DNA from: Ignavibacteria bacterium GWF2_33_9
GTDB taxonomy: Bacteria; Bacteroidota; Ignavibacteria; Kapaibacteriales; UBA2268
Assembly (NCBI GenBank): GCA_001804565.1
Contig: MHAC01000084.1
Span: 49,787 to 82,623 of the forward strand
DNA: 32,837 bases
Direction: 5' to 3'
The translations under genes were made by a program, and so were the position numbers. Positions 11,822-28,376 of this stretch are shown piece after piece (position 1 is the first letter of the stretch; the number at the start of each line of letters is the position of its first letter). The notes below the pieces were generated by a model. It saw only the letters and a program-made list of their open reading frames with translations. It was not told where the DNA came from and made no database searches.

Positions 11822-13210
11822 TTATTTCTTAATTGTTGAAATAAATTCTTCGACTTCAGGAATACCGCCCTGGAAGATCAAGTAACCATTGCTTGGTTCT
11901 CTTTCAGTCATTTCACCGGCAACAGGAGTAAGCATAATTTCTTTCACTTTATCCAACTCATGAGTTTGACCCAAAGCCCAGCCTAATTTCATAAAGGCAA
12001 CTTCAGGCAGCATATTTGCCAGAGGAACTACACCTAATTCCATCAGGTCACGACCTGTATCGTAAACATACATTTGTGCATATCCCCAAAGTGTTTGCAC
12101 AGTCATATATACTGCAACACCCGCTTCTTGTGCTCTTTTTAATGCAGGATAAACAGGTTTATTTACGTGTCCGAGACCTGTACCGGCAATAACAATACCT
12201 TTATAGCCTCTTTCAATGAGTGAATCGAAAATATCCGGATGCATTGCTGGATAATAGTAAACAATAGCAACATTATCATCAAAGTAAGGAACTAATTTGA
12301 AATTGCGGTCATTTCTGCGTTTTTTATAATCAGAGCGAAGAGGTTTAATTGATTGATTATTTACAGTAGCAAGTGGAATATCACCAATTGTACGGAAAGT
12401 CGAACGATAACTGGAATGCATTTTGCGAACTCTTGTTCCACGATGCAAAATGCCATACATATCCGAAGTAGGACCAAACATACAAACCATAACTTCTGCA
12501 ATATCACTCTCAGCTGCAGTTTTCACTGAGTGAATCAAATTAAGTGCAGCATCTGAGCTCGGTCTGTCGCTGGAACGTTGTGAACCCACCATGACGATTG
12601 GTACTGGTGAATCCTGAATCATGAAGGAAAGAATTGCAGCAGTATGGTGCATAGTGTCAGTACCATGACCAATAACAATCCCGTCAACACCTTTTTCTAT
12701 TTCGGCAGCAATTGCTTTTGCTGTGCCGATCCATTGTTCCGGGCCCATATTTTCACTAAATACTCCGTAAAGTTTTACTGTTTCAAGATTGCAAATATCT
12801 GCTAATTCGGGAACTGATCCATAAAGTTCACCTGGTGAAAAAGCAGGAATTACGGCACCTGTCCGATAATCCAAACGGCTTGCTATTGTTCCGCCTGTTC
12901 CGAAAAGCATTACTCTCGGCATCTTAGGTGAATAAGGGAATTCTTTTTCAGGAATTTTATAATGTGCTTCCTTACGACCATTGATTTTAATGTCTCGTAC
13001 TTTGCTTGCACGAACACCGATATTATAGCCAGTACGGAGTTTAATTACAATATGAAATTCATCTTGTTGTTCAGAACGAGGCAAAATCAATCCGATGAAA
13101 GTTGACTCATCAGTTGTTAATTCCACGTCACTCCAAATATAAGCATTATACTGCTTCAGTGCTTCCAGAGCAGCACCACGATAACCTTTAAATAATTCTT
13201 TTTCGTCCAT
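11822..13210 (-). CDS. gatD: Glutamyl-tRNA(Gln) amidotransferase subunit D (archaeal-type GatD, L-asparaginase-like)
   Basis: N-terminal GatD domain (FIGLILPRSEQQDEFHIVIKLRTGYNIGV) ahead of the asparaginase fold: MLFGTGGTIASRLDYRTGAVIPAFSPGEL, ENMGPEQW, GIVIGHGTDTMHHTAAILSFM, VGSQRSSDRPSSDAALNL, RGTRVRKMHSSYRSTF, GIVIAGTGLGHV. Adjacent to gatE. Confidence 0.93.
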   Translation of the reverse strand: MDEKELFKGYRGAALEALKQYNAYIWSDVELTTDESTFIGLILPRSEQQDEFHIVIKLRTGYNIGVRASKVRDIKINGRKEAHYKIPEKEFPYSPKMPRVMLFGTGGTIASRLDYRTGAVIPAFSPGELYGSVPELADICNLETVKLYGVFSENMGPEQWIGTAKAIAAEIEKGVDGIVIGHGTDTMHHTAAILSFMIQDSPVPIVMVGSQRSSDRPSSDAALNLIHSVKTAAESDIAEVMVCMFGPTSDMYGILHRGTRVRKMHSSYRSTFRTIGDIPLATVNNQSIKPLRSDYKKRRNDRNFKLVPYFDDNVAIVYYYPAMHPDIFDSLIERGYKGIVIAGTGLGHVNKPVYPALKRAQEAGVAVYMTVQTLWGYAQMYVYDTGRDLMELGVVPLANMLPEVAFMKLGWALGQTHELDKVKEIMLTPVAGEMTEREPSNGYLIFQGGIPEVEEFISTIKK

Positions 13211-13224
13211 TTTCAGTTCAAATT

Positions 13225-15141
13225 TTAGTCTTTAATTAAGTTTAATATTTCCTGACCTTTCACTTTTCCACGTAATTTCGACATTGTAATACCCATCAAA
13301 ATCTCTGTTTTGAATTCCGGTTTTCTGATTTTTATTCTATCAAATTCTGCTTTTGCTTGATTTATAATTTGAGTTAATTCAGGATCTACACAAAGTTTCG
13401 GCAGCATATCCGGTGAATATTTACCCAAGTTCATTGCTTTACGAATTGTATGCAAAACACCTTCTTTCAAAATGTTGCCAGATTGATAATTGCGGAAAAT
13501 ATCAAGATAATCTTCATGTGAAAGTACAGAAATGTTTAGTTTTTCTTTCTTCAATCTTTTATGAAAATCTATCAGGATAAAACTTGCATATTTCGGATCA
13601 ACTTTTAAATTATAGACAACTTCTTCGAAAGTATCTGCAAATCTTGATCCTGCGATTTCTTCAGAAAGTTTTTCACTCAAGCCCAAATCTTGGTAGTTCT
13701 TAATTCTAATCCAAACAGATTTTGGCAAACCTGCTTTAATTTTGTCATATCTTTCCTGCGTGATTTTAATTGGAGGCAAATCAGTATCAGGATACATTCT
13801 TTCGGGTCCGGGTAAAATTCTTTCGAAACCGTTTGTTCCGTCCGAAAGTGCCTGACGAGTTTCAGAAGGAATTCCAATTGTTGCTTCTTTTGCACGGATA
13901 ATAATCTCGTTTGCTCCGGTTAAGGAATCTCTTTCATCACCCCAAACGATTACTATAGTATCATTTTCGGTTGCACCGATTGATTTCTTTATAATACTCC
14001 ATTCCGAGGAAGGAATTGATTCGCTCATAGAATCAGAATGCATAATATTTGGCAAAGTTGAAAGACAAGCAATTACTCTAACTCTATCTGAAATTTCTCG
14101 TGAAAAATAAGTATCAGTTTGAGTCTGCCATCTTAGCAAACCTTTAAATCCATGGAGTAGAACACATCTCACTCTATTACCTTTTGCTATAGCATCGCTG
14201 ATTTGGAAGCACCGAGTTTTCCTCATCAATTTTGTTATATCCGCATTTTCAGCTGAAAAAGTTTCTGCGTTAATGCCACGATTCCATAATTCCTGACGCA
14301 ATTTGAGTAAATTCCATTGTCTCATTGCTTCATTATATGTCAGAAGTGGAATTTTAGTAATTTTGGATACACCTTTTATTTCAATTCTGGTACCACCTGT
14401 AACTGATACATTCACATCTTGTCTTGCTGCACCCATTCCTGTTCTCACGTGACCGGTGGAACGAGCCATTTTGCGAATAATTTGGTTAACTTCAGCAACT
14501 TCCTGAGGTGTTTTCATTTCCGGTTGAGTTACTGTTTCAATTAGTGGCATACCAAGCCTATCAGTAATATACACACGTTTATGTCCAACATCACTCACTT
14601 CACGGCAAGAATCCTCTTCGATCGACATTTGAATTAGATTGATTTGCTTGTCCTTATAGGGTAATGCTCCACCTACCGATACGATGGCAGTTCTTTGGAA
14701 ACCGGTCGGTATGCTGCCATCCAAATACTGTTTTCTTGCTATATGAACTTCATCAACAATATGAGCATTATTGAGCATTGCAATTTCCATTGCAATATCC
14801 AATGCGTTTGAATTCATCATAAACGGTGGTGTATCGTCCATTTCGTATGTGCAGACAGTATCGTAATTTATTCTATAAATAATTTCTTTTTTAGTTTTAA
14901 ATTCCATCAAGGCAGTCCCATCGTACTCGCCCAGTTCAGAAAGGGTTGGTCGCATGTGACGCAGAATTTCTGCATTATAATTGCTTGAATAATGTCCGGC
15001 AGGGCAGCGGCAGAAGAGTTTTTTATCTGTCCAAAGTTGTTGATGCACCTCCAGACCTGATTTGAAACCTACTTTCGCATAATCTTCGGGAGTCATCAGA
15101 TTAAATGGCTTAAAATCGAAATCGAAATAATTAATGTTCAT
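13225..15141 (-). CDS. gatE: Glutamyl-tRNA(Gln) amidotransferase subunit E (archaeal-type GatE, with GAD insertion domain)
   Basis: GLEVHQQLWTDKKLFCRCPAGH, RPTLSELGEYDGTAL, GFQRTAIVSVGG, DRLGMPLIETVTQPEMKTPQE, GAARQDVNVSVTGGTRIEIKGVS, a GAD-like insertion (IGATENDTIVIVWGDE...ANEIIIRAKEATIGIPSETRQAL) before FERILPGPERMYPDTDLPPI, and a GatB/YqeY-like C-terminus. Confidence 0.93.
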   Translation of the reverse strand: MNINYFDFDFKPFNLMTPEDYAKVGFKSGLEVHQQLWTDKKLFCRCPAGHYSSNYNAEILRHMRPTLSELGEYDGTALMEFKTKKEIIYRINYDTVCTYEMDDTPPFMMNSNALDIAMEIAMLNNAHIVDEVHIARKQYLDGSIPTGFQRTAIVSVGGALPYKDKQINLIQMSIEEDSCREVSDVGHKRVYITDRLGMPLIETVTQPEMKTPQEVAEVNQIIRKMARSTGHVRTGMGAARQDVNVSVTGGTRIEIKGVSKITKIPLLTYNEAMRQWNLLKLRQELWNRGINAETFSAENADITKLMRKTRCFQISDAIAKGNRVRCVLLHGFKGLLRWQTQTDTYFSREISDRVRVIACLSTLPNIMHSDSMSESIPSSEWSIIKKSIGATENDTIVIVWGDERDSLTGANEIIIRAKEATIGIPSETRQALSDGTNGFERILPGPERMYPDTDLPPIKITQERYDKIKAGLPKSVWIRIKNYQDLGLSEKLSEEIAGSRFADTFEEVVYNLKVDPKYASFILIDFHKRLKKEKLNISVLSHEDYLDIFRNYQSGNILKEGVLHTIRKAMNLGKYSPDMLPKLCVDPELTQIINQAKAEFDRIKIRKPEFKTEILMGITMSKLRGKVKGQEILNLIKD

Positions 15142-17588: not shown

Positions 17589-19895
17589 CTATTTTACAAT
17601 AATAAACGGCAGAATCACACTTTCAGTTAGAGTTTTCACCCCAATGAAATATTGTCCTGATGGTAATAATGCATTGTTTAAATCATAATATGATTGTCCT
17701 TCTTCAATATTACCCTGGAAAATTGTCATTACAACTTTTCCCTTAAGGTCGTAAATATTCAATGATGCATTCATAAATTGAGCTTTCGAAGTGATTTCCA
17801 ATTTGAAATCGCCTCCGGAAGGATTTGGAAATGCTTTCATTGAAAGTGTACCCAATTTATTTTGTACCTCACCTTTAACTGAGAATGGATCATGACCTGT
17901 TCCTTTCAAATATATTTTGAAATTATTTCCTCCTTCGTTTGTAGCATTTGTAAACATACCAAGTTCACCATAATAAACATCCATATCTGTATAAGGTTTG
18001 AAGTTTACTGGTATTTTATACATTTCGGAAGGAGCAATCAATACCGGAGTTTGGTCAATGTATCCATCAGGGACAGTGAAAACATCATAATCATCATTGA
18101 GATAAAACTTATTAATTCTCAGCGAATCTGCACCAGTACTTAAGATATTAAATTCCATCTGAACTTCATTATTTAAGGTCACATATCCAAAATCTAAAGT
18201 ATCAAATGCCAAATCTGATGAAATACTTGGTCCGATACCTGAGGATTTGGTTTTACCAACTAATTTAATGAATGCAACGTAGTTCTTCACTGCATTGGAT
18301 GTTATCTTCAAAGTTGCAGAATAAGATTTACCATAATCGATTGGTGAGAATTTAACTGAGAAAGTATATTGAGTTCCGGGTTTCACAACTTGTGGGAAAT
18401 TCATTGTCTGTGGGAATGAAAATGCGTTACCGATATTATCATAAAATTCGATATTATCAACAATCACATTATCTGTCCCAACACTGTTGAAGTAAATATC
18501 TTTTGTTTTACTAGTTGGAATCTCAACAACACCAAAATCGAATGGTTCTGCACTTACTCTGATTTCAGGACCGGTTGGAGCATCCTTACCGCCTCTTCCT
18601 TTAACGTTGATTGCGGTTGAAGGAGCATTAATTGCATCTGATTCAATGAAGAGTTGGTCTTCATAATCTCTTTCTTCGGTAGGTGTAAATCCAATTTTAA
18701 TTGTTCTGAATTCACCTGGTTGCAGAACTCCGGCACCACCGCCTTCAATAACTACGAATGTACCGGGTTCTTCCCATTCATTCCATTCAATTGCACTTAT
18801 TGTCAGAGGTTTTTTACCAAAATTACGAATTCTAACTTCCTGTGTTTTTTGTTGATCTAATAAAGATTCACCAAAATTAACAAGAGTAGCTTCCAAATCA
18901 ATCCATTGTCCATATTTTGGTAGGTCTTTTGTAAACCAATCCATTGCGTACAATTCAGTATTAGTGAAATATTGCAATTCCGTTAATGCTATGTTATCTG
19001 GAGCCAAACTCCAAAGCACTATACGACCATCACCAACATCTGCTCTAACTCCAACCCAGCTTCCCATAGGAACATTTGGATCACCGTCAGTCTTGCCATA
19101 TTTATCCAAATATGCAAAACCGGTTCCTAAAGCATTACTTGCTAATTTGAATTGATCTAAAAGAGTTCTGTATGCAATTGGGTGCATAGGTTCTACATTT
19201 CTGCCGTATGCAATGTTGCCGTAATAATCATATCCTTTAGCAACAGGATCACCATCAATACCTTCGATATGATAAGGCAAGTAACTTTGACCGTCAGTAA
19301 TTGCAATAACACCTGTTTGGGGAGGATCAATTCCGATTTCATTTTGGAGGAAATCGATTACTACAGGATCTTTCCCGCCTGCAAATGTGCCATCTTGATG
19401 GAATGCATAGGAAGCCCAATAACGACCGATAACCATAACTCTCTTACCTGCATTAAGCATTTCTTTGATTTTGTCAATAATCTTGATACCACCTTGTGTA
19501 GCGGCATTCAATGGCCAGCTTCCGATTGGGAAAATTGCAACATCAAAATCCGTGAGAGTATATTGTGAAAGGGTTGCATCACTATACGGAGCACGAACCA
19601 TCAAATTATAATAATTGTAGTCAGGATTTGGCCACTTTTTGTAAATGTCATAATATGCCAATTCGATATAATTCGAAACCTGATTGGAAATTTCAGGATC
19701 CAGATTATCGAACAGTATATACATCTGATTGTCTGCGTTATTTATCTTAGGCAGTGGGTTACTTTTACCCTCGGGGATTATCATTGGATTTGCAGGTAAA
19801 TCCAAACCTGTTAAGTTTTTTGCAACTTCTATTGCACTTGTGTTTAAACTGAATGCAATAAAAAGAGTGATGAAAATAGTTAATGATTTTTTCAT
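17589..19895 (-). CDS. T9SS cargo protein with C-terminal type A sorting domain and HYDIN/ASPM-like (choice-of-anchor D) repeats
   Basis: N-terminal signal peptide; C-terminus SMKAFPNPSGGDFKLEI...LNIYDLKGKVVMTIF...LPSGQYFIGVKT; internal repeats such as VNFGESLLDQQKTQEVRIRNFGKKPLTIS, FDFGVVEIPTSKTKDIYFNSVGTDNVIVD and LDFGYVTLNNEVQMEFNILSTGADSLRIN. Confidence 0.88.
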   Translation of the reverse strand: MKKSLTIFITLFIAFSLNTSAIEVAKNLTGLDLPANPMIIPEGKSNPLPKINNADNQMYILFDNLDPEISNQVSNYIELAYYDIYKKWPNPDYNYYNLMVRAPYSDATLSQYTLTDFDVAIFPIGSWPLNAATQGGIKIIDKIKEMLNAGKRVMVIGRYWASYAFHQDGTFAGGKDPVVIDFLQNEIGIDPPQTGVIAITDGQSYLPYHIEGIDGDPVAKGYDYYGNIAYGRNVEPMHPIAYRTLLDQFKLASNALGTGFAYLDKYGKTDGDPNVPMGSWVGVRADVGDGRIVLWSLAPDNIALTELQYFTNTELYAMDWFTKDLPKYGQWIDLEATLVNFGESLLDQQKTQEVRIRNFGKKPLTISAIEWNEWEEPGTFVVIEGGGAGVLQPGEFRTIKIGFTPTEERDYEDQLFIESDAINAPSTAINVKGRGGKDAPTGPEIRVSAEPFDFGVVEIPTSKTKDIYFNSVGTDNVIVDNIEFYDNIGNAFSFPQTMNFPQVVKPGTQYTFSVKFSPIDYGKSYSATLKITSNAVKNYVAFIKLVGKTKSSGIGPSISSDLAFDTLDFGYVTLNNEVQMEFNILSTGADSLRINKFYLNDDYDVFTVPDGYIDQTPVLIAPSEMYKIPVNFKPYTDMDVYYGELGMFTNATNEGGNNFKIYLKGTGHDPFSVKGEVQNKLGTLSMKAFPNPSGGDFKLEITSKAQFMNASLNIYDLKGKVVMTIFQGNIEEGQSYYDLNNALLPSGQYFIGVKTLTESVILPFIIVK

Positions 19896-26807: not shown

Positions 26808-28376
26808 ATGAATAAAGGAAAAATTCTTTGGATTGATGATGAAATAGAAATGCTTCGTCCTCATTTAATTTTATTGAAAGAAAAAGGATATGAAGTTGAA
26901 ACCTCTTCTAATGGTGAAGACGGAATTGAATTGATGAAATCGCATCACTTTGATTTAGTATTTCTTGATGAGACAATGGTGGGACTTACTGGATTAGAAA
27001 CATTACCGATTTTAAAACAAATTGATCCGGCTGCAGCTGTTGTGATGGTTACGAAAAATGAAGCTGAGAGCCTAATGGAAGATGCAATTGGCAAATCAAT
27101 TGATGATTATTTAACAAAACCTGTAAATCCTGCTCAGATATTACTAACCTGTAAAAAGTTTCTTGAGGAAGATAGGATTAGACAGGAAACGTTTATCACA
27201 AATTATCTACAGAATTTCAATCAAATATCCCATAAAATTTTGATGCAAAGAACCTGGGATGACTGGATTGAAATTTATACACAACTTGTCGATTGGACAA
27301 TCGAATTGGACAGACTGAAAAATACAGGTCTCGACCAAACTTTGCAAGACCAATGGAAATCTGCAAATTTAGAATTTTCTAAGTTTGTTGAAGATAATTA
27401 TCTTGATTGGTTGACTGATTTACATGAAGAAGGTAATCCGTTACTTTCACCACATATTGCAACAAAGTACCTGGAACCTGCTCTTAAGAAAGGAAATCCG
27501 GTATTTTTTATTGTAGTAGATTGTATGAGATATGATCAATGGTTGACTATGAAGGATTTGCTAAATCCATACTACTCAATAAAGACTGATTTTTATTCTT
27601 CGATATTGCCGACTGCTACTCCTTTTTCAAGAAATGCAATTTTTGCAGGGCTATATCCACTGCAAATCAAGCAGTACTATCCGCAATGGTGGAATGTGGA
27701 TTCAAATACTGAAGACCATAAACAAAATGCCTACGAAAGAGAATTGCAGGAATCATGGCTTGAAAGAAAAAGAATTAAACTAAAAAGCAAACTGAATTTT
27801 ATCAAGATTTTCGATACTGAATTCGGTAAAAAAGTGGAAAGAGAATTAAAGGATTATCTGGATTCACACTTGACAACTCTTGTAATCAATGCAGTAGATA
27901 TGATTGCCCATTCCCGTTCGGATTATGCAATATTGAAGGAGATAGCTCCGAATGAATCAGCATACAGAACATTGACTAAATCTTGGTTCAATCATTCAAG
28001 TTTACTTTCAATGCTTAAGAAAATAGCTGAAAAAGGAAATGCCACTGTGATTATCACAACAGACCATGGTTCGGTAAGATGTATGAAAGGAGTACAGGTG
28101 TTGGGTGATAAAGAAACTTCTACAAATCTCCGATATAAATTTGGCAAGAATGTAAAAACTGAAGCTAAACATGCAATGATGGTGAAAAATCTGGAAGATA
28201 TTCGTATACCTAAGATGGGAATTTCTGTCAGTAACTTCATTGCAAAAGATGATGCTTACTTCGTTTATCCTACGGATTATCATTATTATTTGAATAAATA
28301 TAAAGACAGTTTCCAGCACGGAGGTATTTCTCTTGAAGAGATGATAATTCCTATCAGTATTCTGGAACCTAGATAA
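26808..28376 (+). CDS. porX: PorX-type response regulator with PglZ (alkaline-phosphatase superfamily) effector domain; T9SS regulator
   Basis: Receiver domain ILWIDDEIEMLRPHLILLKEKGYEVETSSNGEDGIEL...FDLVFLDETMVGLTG...DDYLTKPVNP, then PglZ-like VFFIVVDCMRYDQWLTMKDLL...SILPTATPFSRNAIFAGLYP...ATVIITTDHGSVR...FQHGGISLEEMIIPI. Confidence 0.92.
   Translation: MNKGKILWIDDEIEMLRPHLILLKEKGYEVETSSNGEDGIELMKSHHFDLVFLDETMVGLTGLETLPILKQIDPAAAVVMVTKNEAESLMEDAIGKSIDDYLTKPVNPAQILLTCKKFLEEDRIRQETFITNYLQNFNQISHKILMQRTWDDWIEIYTQLVDWTIELDRLKNTGLDQTLQDQWKSANLEFSKFVEDNYLDWLTDLHEEGNPLLSPHIATKYLEPALKKGNPVFFIVVDCMRYDQWLTMKDLLNPYYSIKTDFYSSILPTATPFSRNAIFAGLYPLQIKQYYPQWWNVDSNTEDHKQNAYERELQESWLERKRIKLKSKLNFIKIFDTEFGKKVERELKDYLDSHLTTLVINAVDMIAHSRSDYAILKEIAPNESAYRTLTKSWFNHSSLLSMLKKIAEKGNATVIITTDHGSVRCMKGVQVLGDKETSTNLRYKFGKNVKTEAKHAMMVKNLEDIRIPKMGISVSNFIAKDDAYFVYPTDYHYYLNKYKDSFQHGGISLEEMIIPISILEPR

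What the first reader, a model, noticed from the sequence alone, without database searches (positions are those of the whole stretch)
11822..15141. Complete archaeal-type GatE-GatD amidotransferase pair in a bacterial genome
Two adjacent ORFs (14 nt apart) translate to full-length GatD, with the N-terminal GatD domain plus asparaginase-fold motifs, and GatE, with a GatB-like core, AspRS-like GAD insertion and YqeY-like tail. GatDE is classically described as the archaeal-specific Glu-tRNA(Gln) amidotransferase, while bacteria use GatCAB or GlnRS. The flanking genes (T9SS cargo, PorX, PriA, LptB, CcmF) are clearly bacterial. Motifs expected for catalysis appear intact in both: GTGGTIAS, HGTDTMHHTA and SSDRPSSDAA in GatD, GLEVHQQL and RQDVNVS in GatE. 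This suggests lateral acquisition, or an unrecognised bacterial GatDE lineage, of a translation-fidelity enzyme. I cannot exclude that bacterial GatDE homologs are already in databases.
Basis: partly seen in the sequence, partly recalled or inferred. Interest (0 to 1): 0.82.

Follow-up and report, generated by a model that had tools for sequence, protein, structure and literature searches.

The report
Bacterial branch of archaeal GatDE amidotransferase
The genome carries a complete, selected-for pair of genes (gatE-gatD) for an enzyme that reviews place only in archaea and that turns glutamate into glutamine on its tRNA; the pair proves to be an old, widely shared bacterial branch in Kapabacteria and Ignavibacteria, kept alongside the ordinary enzyme for the same job, so its role is an open question.

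Summary
In detail: 13225-15141(-) is full-length GatE and 11822-13210(-) full-length GatD. Both pass the NCBI equivalog cut-offs, match crystallised archaeal GatDE along nearly their whole length and keep the GatD catalytic residues. It is neither a one-off nor a recent archaeal gift. The pair occurs in 28 of 37 genomes of the host's family (Kapaibacteriaceae-like), in Ignavibacteriaceae, Melioribacteraceae and relatives, and scattered in KSB1, Marinimicrobia and Aminicenantes. All sampled copies form one clade, far from Pyrococcus and Methanothermobacter GatDE, whose tree broadly follows taxonomy, under strong purifying selection (dN/dS 0.006-0.09). A 2022 review still calls GatDE archaea-only. 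The surprise is its company: this genome has GlnRS, GluRS and AsnRS but no detectable GatCAB, and almost every GatDE genome has GlnRS or GatCAB too. GatDE is therefore probably an accessory that converts stray Glu-tRNAGln to Gln-tRNAGln, not the main route; that role is inferred. GluRS in most GlnRS-bearing genomes has lost a residue fixed in genomes that must mischarge tRNAGln. The host's tRNAGln has the A1-U72 pair used by archaeal GatDE, but most GatDE genomes keep bacterial U1-A72. New variant of a known kind; activity and substrate untested.

The parts
13225..15141 (-). gatE, Glu-tRNA(Gln) amidotransferase subunit E, 638 aa: GatB-type catalytic core, AspRS-like (GAD) insertion, YqeY-like tail
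   Evidence: NF003107 551 bits and TIGR00134 472 bits, both over cut-off; phmmer to 1zq1_C 1.3e-103 over residues 20-636; 82 residues invariant between 89 bacterial and 2 archaeal sequences
11822..13210 (-). gatD, Glu-tRNA(Gln) amidotransferase subunit D (amide donor side), 462 aa: GatD_N domain plus asparaginase-fold domains
   Evidence: NF003217 507 bits and TIGR02153 505 bits, both over cut-off; phmmer to 1zq1_A 5.6e-119; T101/T177/D178/K254 equivalents conserved 89 of 89
13211..13224 (-). 14-nt gap between gatE and gatD (two-gene unit)
   Evidence: AATTTGAACTGAAA on the coding strand; gap between -14 and +42 nt in most of the sampled bacterial loci

Best explanation
A functional bacterial GatDE, belonging to an old bacterial branch of the family. 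Mechanism (inferred from archaeal GatDE): GatD releases ammonia from glutamine or asparagine; GatE phosphorylates the gamma-carboxyl of Glu on Glu-tRNAGln and amidates it to Gln-tRNAGln. In this genome GlnRS most likely does the bulk of Gln-tRNAGln synthesis, and GatDE is an accessory that converts Glu-tRNAGln made by an imperfectly discriminating GluRS, so that Glu is not misread at Gln codons. Shown here: presence, intact motifs, selection, spread, lack of GatCAB, presence of GlnRS. Inferred: the reaction, the substrate and the accessory role. The confidence covers the whole statement; for the reaction alone it would be about 0.8.
For: Full-length orthology and conserved catalytic residues; two-gene unit conserved in about 73-79 sampled loci with no other conserved neighbour; dN/dS 0.006-0.09 in both genes. 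GlnRS (784 bits), GluRS and AsnRS present, no GatA match and no GatB match in this genome, while GatB and GatA are readily found in sister genomes. GatDE is almost never the only Gln-tRNA route: in the family 18 of 28 GatDE genomes have GlnRS without GatA, 8 have GatA without GlnRS, 1 has both, and 1 (84% complete, with no GluRS found either) has neither; outside the family 23 of 24 have GlnRS. tRNAGln here has A1-U72, a pair bacterial GatCAB does not use but archaeal GatDE does. On a GluRS tree GatDE changes state 3 times against 6 for GlnRS and 5 for GatCAB, so GatDE is the steadier trait.
Against: GluRS of this genome lacks the valine (T. thermophilus position 443) that all 18 GlnRS-less genomes keep, so it may be discriminating and supply little Glu-tRNAGln. 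A1-U72 is not tied to GatDE: 14 of 18 GatDE-positive, GatCAB-negative genomes of the family keep U1-A72, and two GatDE-less genomes (G033, G043) have A1-U72. Strong constraint says the pair matters but not for what. One GlnRS-only sister (G033) does without it.
Confidence: 0.52

Rival explanations
1. GatDE with a non-discriminating GluRS is the main Gln-tRNAGln route and GlnRS is the auxiliary or poorly active one (as was suspected for the GlnRS of Ignavibacterium album in PMC3927822).
For: GlnRS genes come and go (6 changes) while GatDE stays (3 changes); PMC3927822 suggested the I. album GlnRS may be non-functional, without considering GatDE.
Against: GlnRS is intact and high-scoring in nearly all these genomes; GluRS loses the non-discriminating-type residue exactly where GlnRS is present; GatDE-positive genomes without GlnRS nearly always have GatCAB.
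Confidence: 0.13
2. The bacterial branch has a different job: for example another acyl-tRNA or a non-translational amide transfer, with Glu-tRNAGln no longer the substrate.
For: Coexists with complete alternatives; 38 GatE positions are fixed in bacteria but differ from both archaeal enzymes; most host tRNAGln carry U1-A72, not the archaeal A1-U72.
Against: 82 GatE positions and the GatD catalytic residues are unchanged, including the tail's C-terminal motif; no conserved neighbour gene points to another pathway.
Confidence: 0.2
3. It makes Asn-tRNAAsn (Asp-tRNAAsn amidotransferase) in place of the absent GatCAB.
For: GatCAB is missing here.
Against: AsnRS is present over cut-off in this genome and in 59 of 61 relatives; archaeal GatDE is Gln-specific (PMC9499178).
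Confidence: 0.03
4. Contamination or an archaeal chimera in the contig.
For: None found; the window is from an 87-contig draft assembly.
Against: Same gene order in four independent assemblies; clade shared by more than 80 bacterial loci including complete chromosomes (CP054675.1, CP053447.1); flanks bacterial.
Confidence: 0.01
5. Recent transfer from an archaeon into this lineage.
For: The family is described as archaeal.
Against: Bacterial clade with a stem of about 1.3 changes per site on each side of the root, and a tree that broadly follows taxonomy; identity to the two archaea 33-35% against 58-71% among most bacteria.
Confidence: 0.04

Closest known systems
Archaeal GatDE, Glu-tRNA(Gln) amidotransferase (Pyrococcus abyssi 1ZQ1, Methanothermobacter thermautotrophicus 2D6F)
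   Same: Both subunits full length, same domains, same GatD catalytic residues, 82 invariant GatE residues
   Different: Bacterial host; only 33-35% (GatE) and 46-48% (GatD) identical; 38 bacteria-specific GatE positions; coexists with GlnRS; host tRNAGln mostly U1-A72; E-D gene pair conserved across phyla
Bacterial GatCAB, Asp-tRNA(Asn)/Glu-tRNA(Gln) amidotransferase
   Same: GatE shares the GatB core and YqeY-like tail
   Different: GatB models score far under cut-off for GatE; the amide donor side is asparaginase-type GatD, not amidase-type GatA; GatA not found in this genome
Bacterial GlnRS plus GatCAB sets (Deinococcus, Thermus, Bdellovibrio)
   Same: A direct synthetase coexisting with a tRNA-dependent amidotransferase (PMC4206432)
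   Different: There the amidotransferase is GatCAB and can serve Asn; here it is GatDE, AsnRS is present and no Asn role is expected
Type I/II L-asparaginases
   Same: Asparaginase fold and catalytic residues
   Different: GatD_N domain present, fused gene order with gatE, GatD models score 505-507 bits over cut-off. M. roseus MrAII (PMC8709496) is a separate 35-kDa type II enzyme, not this one

Membership tests
GatDE | GatD: GatD_N domain plus asparaginase domains, passing curated GatD equivalog models | tested here: met
GatDE | GatD catalytic residues T101, T177, D178, K254 (M. thermautotrophicus numbering; identity of the residues from own knowledge) | tested here: met
   conserved in window and 89 of 89 bacterial sequences
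GatDE | GatE: GatB-type core, AspRS-like insertion, YqeY-like tail, passing curated GatE equivalog models | tested here: met
   GAD domain itself slightly under Pfam's cut-off
GatDE | Both subunits encoded together in the genome | tested here: met
   adjacent, 14 nt apart; conserved pair
GatDE | Archaeal host lacking GlnRS | tested here: not met
   bacterial genome with GlnRS. A historical description of where the family occurs, not a structural criterion; it lowers the claim that it plays the archaeal role
GatDE | tRNAGln with A1-U72 and matching D-loop recognised by GatE | tested here: inconclusive
   A1-U72 in this genome, but U1-A72 in most GatDE genomes; binding not testable
GatDE | Partner non-discriminating GluRS supplying Glu-tRNAGln | tested here: inconclusive
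   position 358 is Arg in all 39 GluRS compared, uninformative; V443 lost here
GatDE | Glu-tRNAGln amidotransferase activity | not testable with these tools
   needs biochemistry
GatCAB | GatA, GatB and GatC subunits | tested here: not met
   no GatA match in this genome, and the GatE-model search, which picks up GatB in sisters, found only GatE and a YqeY-type protein; GatC not searched separately

The most novel reading that the evidence does not exclude
GatDE is a standing safety net that let this group swap its glutamine-charging system repeatedly: while GatDE is retained, lineages change between GatCAB (indirect) and GlnRS (direct), and tRNAGln and GluRS drift away from the GatCAB-type identity after the swap. 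It would mean a third, bacterial, tRNA-dependent amidotransferase with relaxed tRNA recognition (U1-A72 and A1-U72) acting in translation quality control beside a complete direct pathway.
Probability: 0.22. Interest if true: 0.75.

Novelty: new variant of a known kind. Interest (0 to 1): 0.58.

Why it matters
How Gln-tRNAGln is made is a standard dividing line between the domains, and reviews state that GatDE is found only in archaea (PMC9499178; PMC8007984). A deep bacterial GatDE clade revises that picture, bears on whether GatDE was in the last common ancestor, and gives cultivable bacteria (Ignavibacterium, Melioribacter) in which GatDE, GlnRS and sometimes GatCAB coexist, so the cost of Glu-tRNAGln and the purpose of a second amidation system can be tested directly.

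Tried and rejected
GluRS Arg358 as a test of discrimination: Arg in every genome, including those that must mischarge tRNAGln, so uninformative. An Asn role for GatDE: AsnRS present. GatA apparently split in the two g16 genomes (G019, G035; no GlnRS), which would have left GatDE as sole route: the breaks are runs of N in the assembly and the flanking reading frames continue, so not pseudogenes. A1-U72 as a mark of GatDE: it follows absence of GatCAB instead (6 of 21 against 0 of 19, Fisher p = 0.02, not corrected for relatedness), and occurs in GatDE-less genomes. GatDE-GlnRS association in the family: Fisher p = 0.005 without correction, but no independent support from tree pairs, so not claimed. 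Plasmid carriage: only one archaeal megaplasmid with a partial GatE. Conserved neighbours as a clue to function: none beyond genus level. M. roseus MrAII as a characterised GatD: it is another protein. Two tRNA patterns missed or confused tRNAGln with tRNAPro, so a covariance model was used instead. The L123 'Desulfobulbaceae' copy is 98% identical to an Ignavibacteria one, so probably mislabelled or misbinned.

Full report
Observation. Both pass NCBI's curated equivalog cut-offs for the GatDE subunits with a wide margin, while bacterial GatB and asparaginase-only models fit less well. They align along nearly their whole length with the crystallised archaeal enzymes: GatD with 1ZQ1_A and 2D6F_A (5.6e-119, 5.4e-118) and GatE with 1ZQ1_C and 2D6F_C (1.3e-103, 1.2e-93). 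The four GatD catalytic residues, known from archaeal work (own knowledge), are conserved in the window and in all 89 bacterial GatDs compared; 82 GatE positions are invariant across bacteria and the two archaea.

Not a chimera. Flanking genes are bacterial: GAPDH and PGK divergently upstream, proline dehydrogenase and an endonuclease/phosphatase-family protein downstream, and PriA, LptB, PorX and CcmF-like further away. Three other assemblies keep PGK-GAPDH-gatE-gatD and a fourth keeps gatE-gatD-ProDH-EEP.

Host. The genome is a 2.65-Mb, 94% complete draft. The genomes nearest to it in the GatDE tree are labelled Candidatus Kapabacteria or Bacteroidetes, and others of the family Candidatus Kapaibacterium; two same-genus records are labelled Chloroherpeton, probably loosely.

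Distribution. GatE over cut-off occurs in 28 of 37 genomes of the host's family and in none of the 24 sampled genomes from other families of the same order. In 396 genomes drawn across the phylum it occurs in 31: 7 of the host family and 24 of six other families of the class. A scan of 85,462 species genomes returned 102 relatives, the best 80 being Kapabacteria, Ignavibacteria, Melioribacteraceae, 'Chlorobiota' draft genomes and a few from KSB1, UBA2214, Marinimicrobia, Aminicenantes and Acidobacteriota. That search used one protein and keeps only the best 80, so more distant bacterial copies may exist.

Evolution. A concatenated GatE+GatD tree of 89 bacterial pairs and two archaea gives one bacterial clade (SH-aLRT 100) on a long stem, within which host-family and Ignavibacteria groups largely follow taxonomy. 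GatE of the window is 35% and 33% identical to Pyrococcus and Methanothermobacter, which are 52% identical to each other, against 58-71% for most bacteria. With two archaeal sequences, the direction and age of any ancient transfer cannot be settled. The outlier G012 (GatE 42% identical to the window's) is a long branch in the host family whose same-genus sister G033 has no GatDE. The pair is under strong purifying selection: dN/dS 0.027-0.09 for GatE and 0-0.04 for GatD in eleven close pairs. Gene order E-D is kept in about 73-79 loci, with no other conserved neighbour.

What else makes Gln-tRNA. This genome has GlnRS (784 bits), one GluRS and AsnRS, but no GatA and no GatB match. In the family: GatDE+GlnRS without GatA, 18; GatDE+GatA without GlnRS, 8; all three, 1; GatDE alone, 1 (84% complete and with no GluRS found, so a gap is likely); GatA alone, 8; GlnRS alone, 1. 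Outside the family 23 of 24 GatDE genomes have GlnRS and 21 of 24 also have GatA; the Aminicenantes, Marinimicrobia and Acidobacteriota genomes have GlnRS without GatA. Absence of GatA is also seen in single-contig or complete genomes (G338, G440), so it is not only draft incompleteness. The second amidation system is therefore nearly always an addition, unlike in archaea.

tRNAGln. Bacterial GatCAB relies on U1-A72 (PMC9976931) and archaeal GatDE on the D-loop and A1-U72 (PMC9499178). This genome has a single detected tRNAGln(UUG), with A1-U72. Across 40 genomes A1-U72 is found in 6 of 21 without GatCAB and 0 of 19 with it (p = 0.02 before any correction for relatedness). That fits release from GatCAB and agrees with the gene absences, but 14 of 18 GatDE-positive, GatCAB-negative genomes of the family keep U1-A72, and G033 and G043 have A1-U72 without GatDE. 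If the bacterial enzyme acts on tRNAGln, it must accept U1-A72.

GluRS. Arg358, the classical discrimination residue, is invariant and so tells nothing here. The residue aligned with T. thermophilus 443, next to the anticodon-contacting Thr444 (own knowledge), is Val in 18 of 18 genomes without GlnRS and in 2 of 21 with it; in this genome it is Lys. The contrast holds inside the host's genus (Val in G001-G003, Lys and Gly in G000 and G004), but only four well-supported independent pairs exist, too few for significance. It suggests GluRS has changed specificity where GlnRS took over, which makes a large supply of Glu-tRNAGln in this cell uncertain.

Mechanism. Best-supported reading: GatDE performs the archaeal reaction (GatD liberates ammonia, GatE activates and amidates Glu on tRNAGln) and in bacteria serves as an accessory that cleans up Glu-tRNAGln. 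The chemistry is inferred from orthology and conserved residues; the accessory role is inferred from coexistence and constraint; neither was measured. The counts of state changes (GatDE 3, GatCAB 5, GlnRS 6 on a GluRS tree with the signature columns removed) raise the further idea that GatDE allows swaps between GatCAB and GlnRS, put forward only as the novel case.

Known or new. NCBI's models already name these proteins, so databases hold the annotation; but reviews of 2021 and 2022 describe GatDE as archaeal only, a 2014 survey of bacterial GlxRS that included Ignavibacterium album does not mention it, and no held paper was found that reports a bacterial GatDE (subscription papers and Sheppard and Soll 2008 itself could not be read). 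I therefore rate it a new variant of a known kind.

Noticed in passing
G000:C52:19746-19818 (locus L058/L201), same genome, outside the window: The only tRNAGln found has A1-U72, unusual for bacteria; the same change appears in five other genomes that lack GatCAB.
   Followed up: yes
GluRS loci L281-L320: Val at T. thermophilus position 443 and a QQKAGxxPKYDR loop are fixed in genomes without GlnRS and degenerate in genomes with it: a possible new marker of non-discriminating GluRS in this group.
   Followed up: partly
L181, L191: In KSB1 and UBA2214 about 3.2 kb with a ~500-aa ORF and a second ORF that looks like methylenetetrahydrofolate reductase (by eye) separates gatE from gatD, with a PLP-type methionine/cystathionine enzyme-like ORF after gatD.
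   Followed up: no
L172, L187, L160, L169: Single extra ORFs between gatE and gatD: an ankyrin-like 288-aa ORF in Melioribacter, and a Bro/RhuM-like ORF (105-277 aa) in Ignavibacterium (both by eye).
   Followed up: no
L085 (G012): Fast-evolving GatDE (GatE 42%, GatD 65% identical to the window's); its tRNAGln has A1-U72 and a larger D-loop, and its same-genus sister G033 has lost GatDE.
   Followed up: partly
G074:C45:508058-512924: GlnRS lies directly next to gatE-gatD in this genome, suggesting functional or historical linkage.
   Followed up: no
window 17589-19895(-) and 26808-28376(+): Choice-of-anchor D domain protein and PorX-type response regulator (T9SS_RR_PorX 674 bits), supporting a type IX secretion background.
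   Followed up: no
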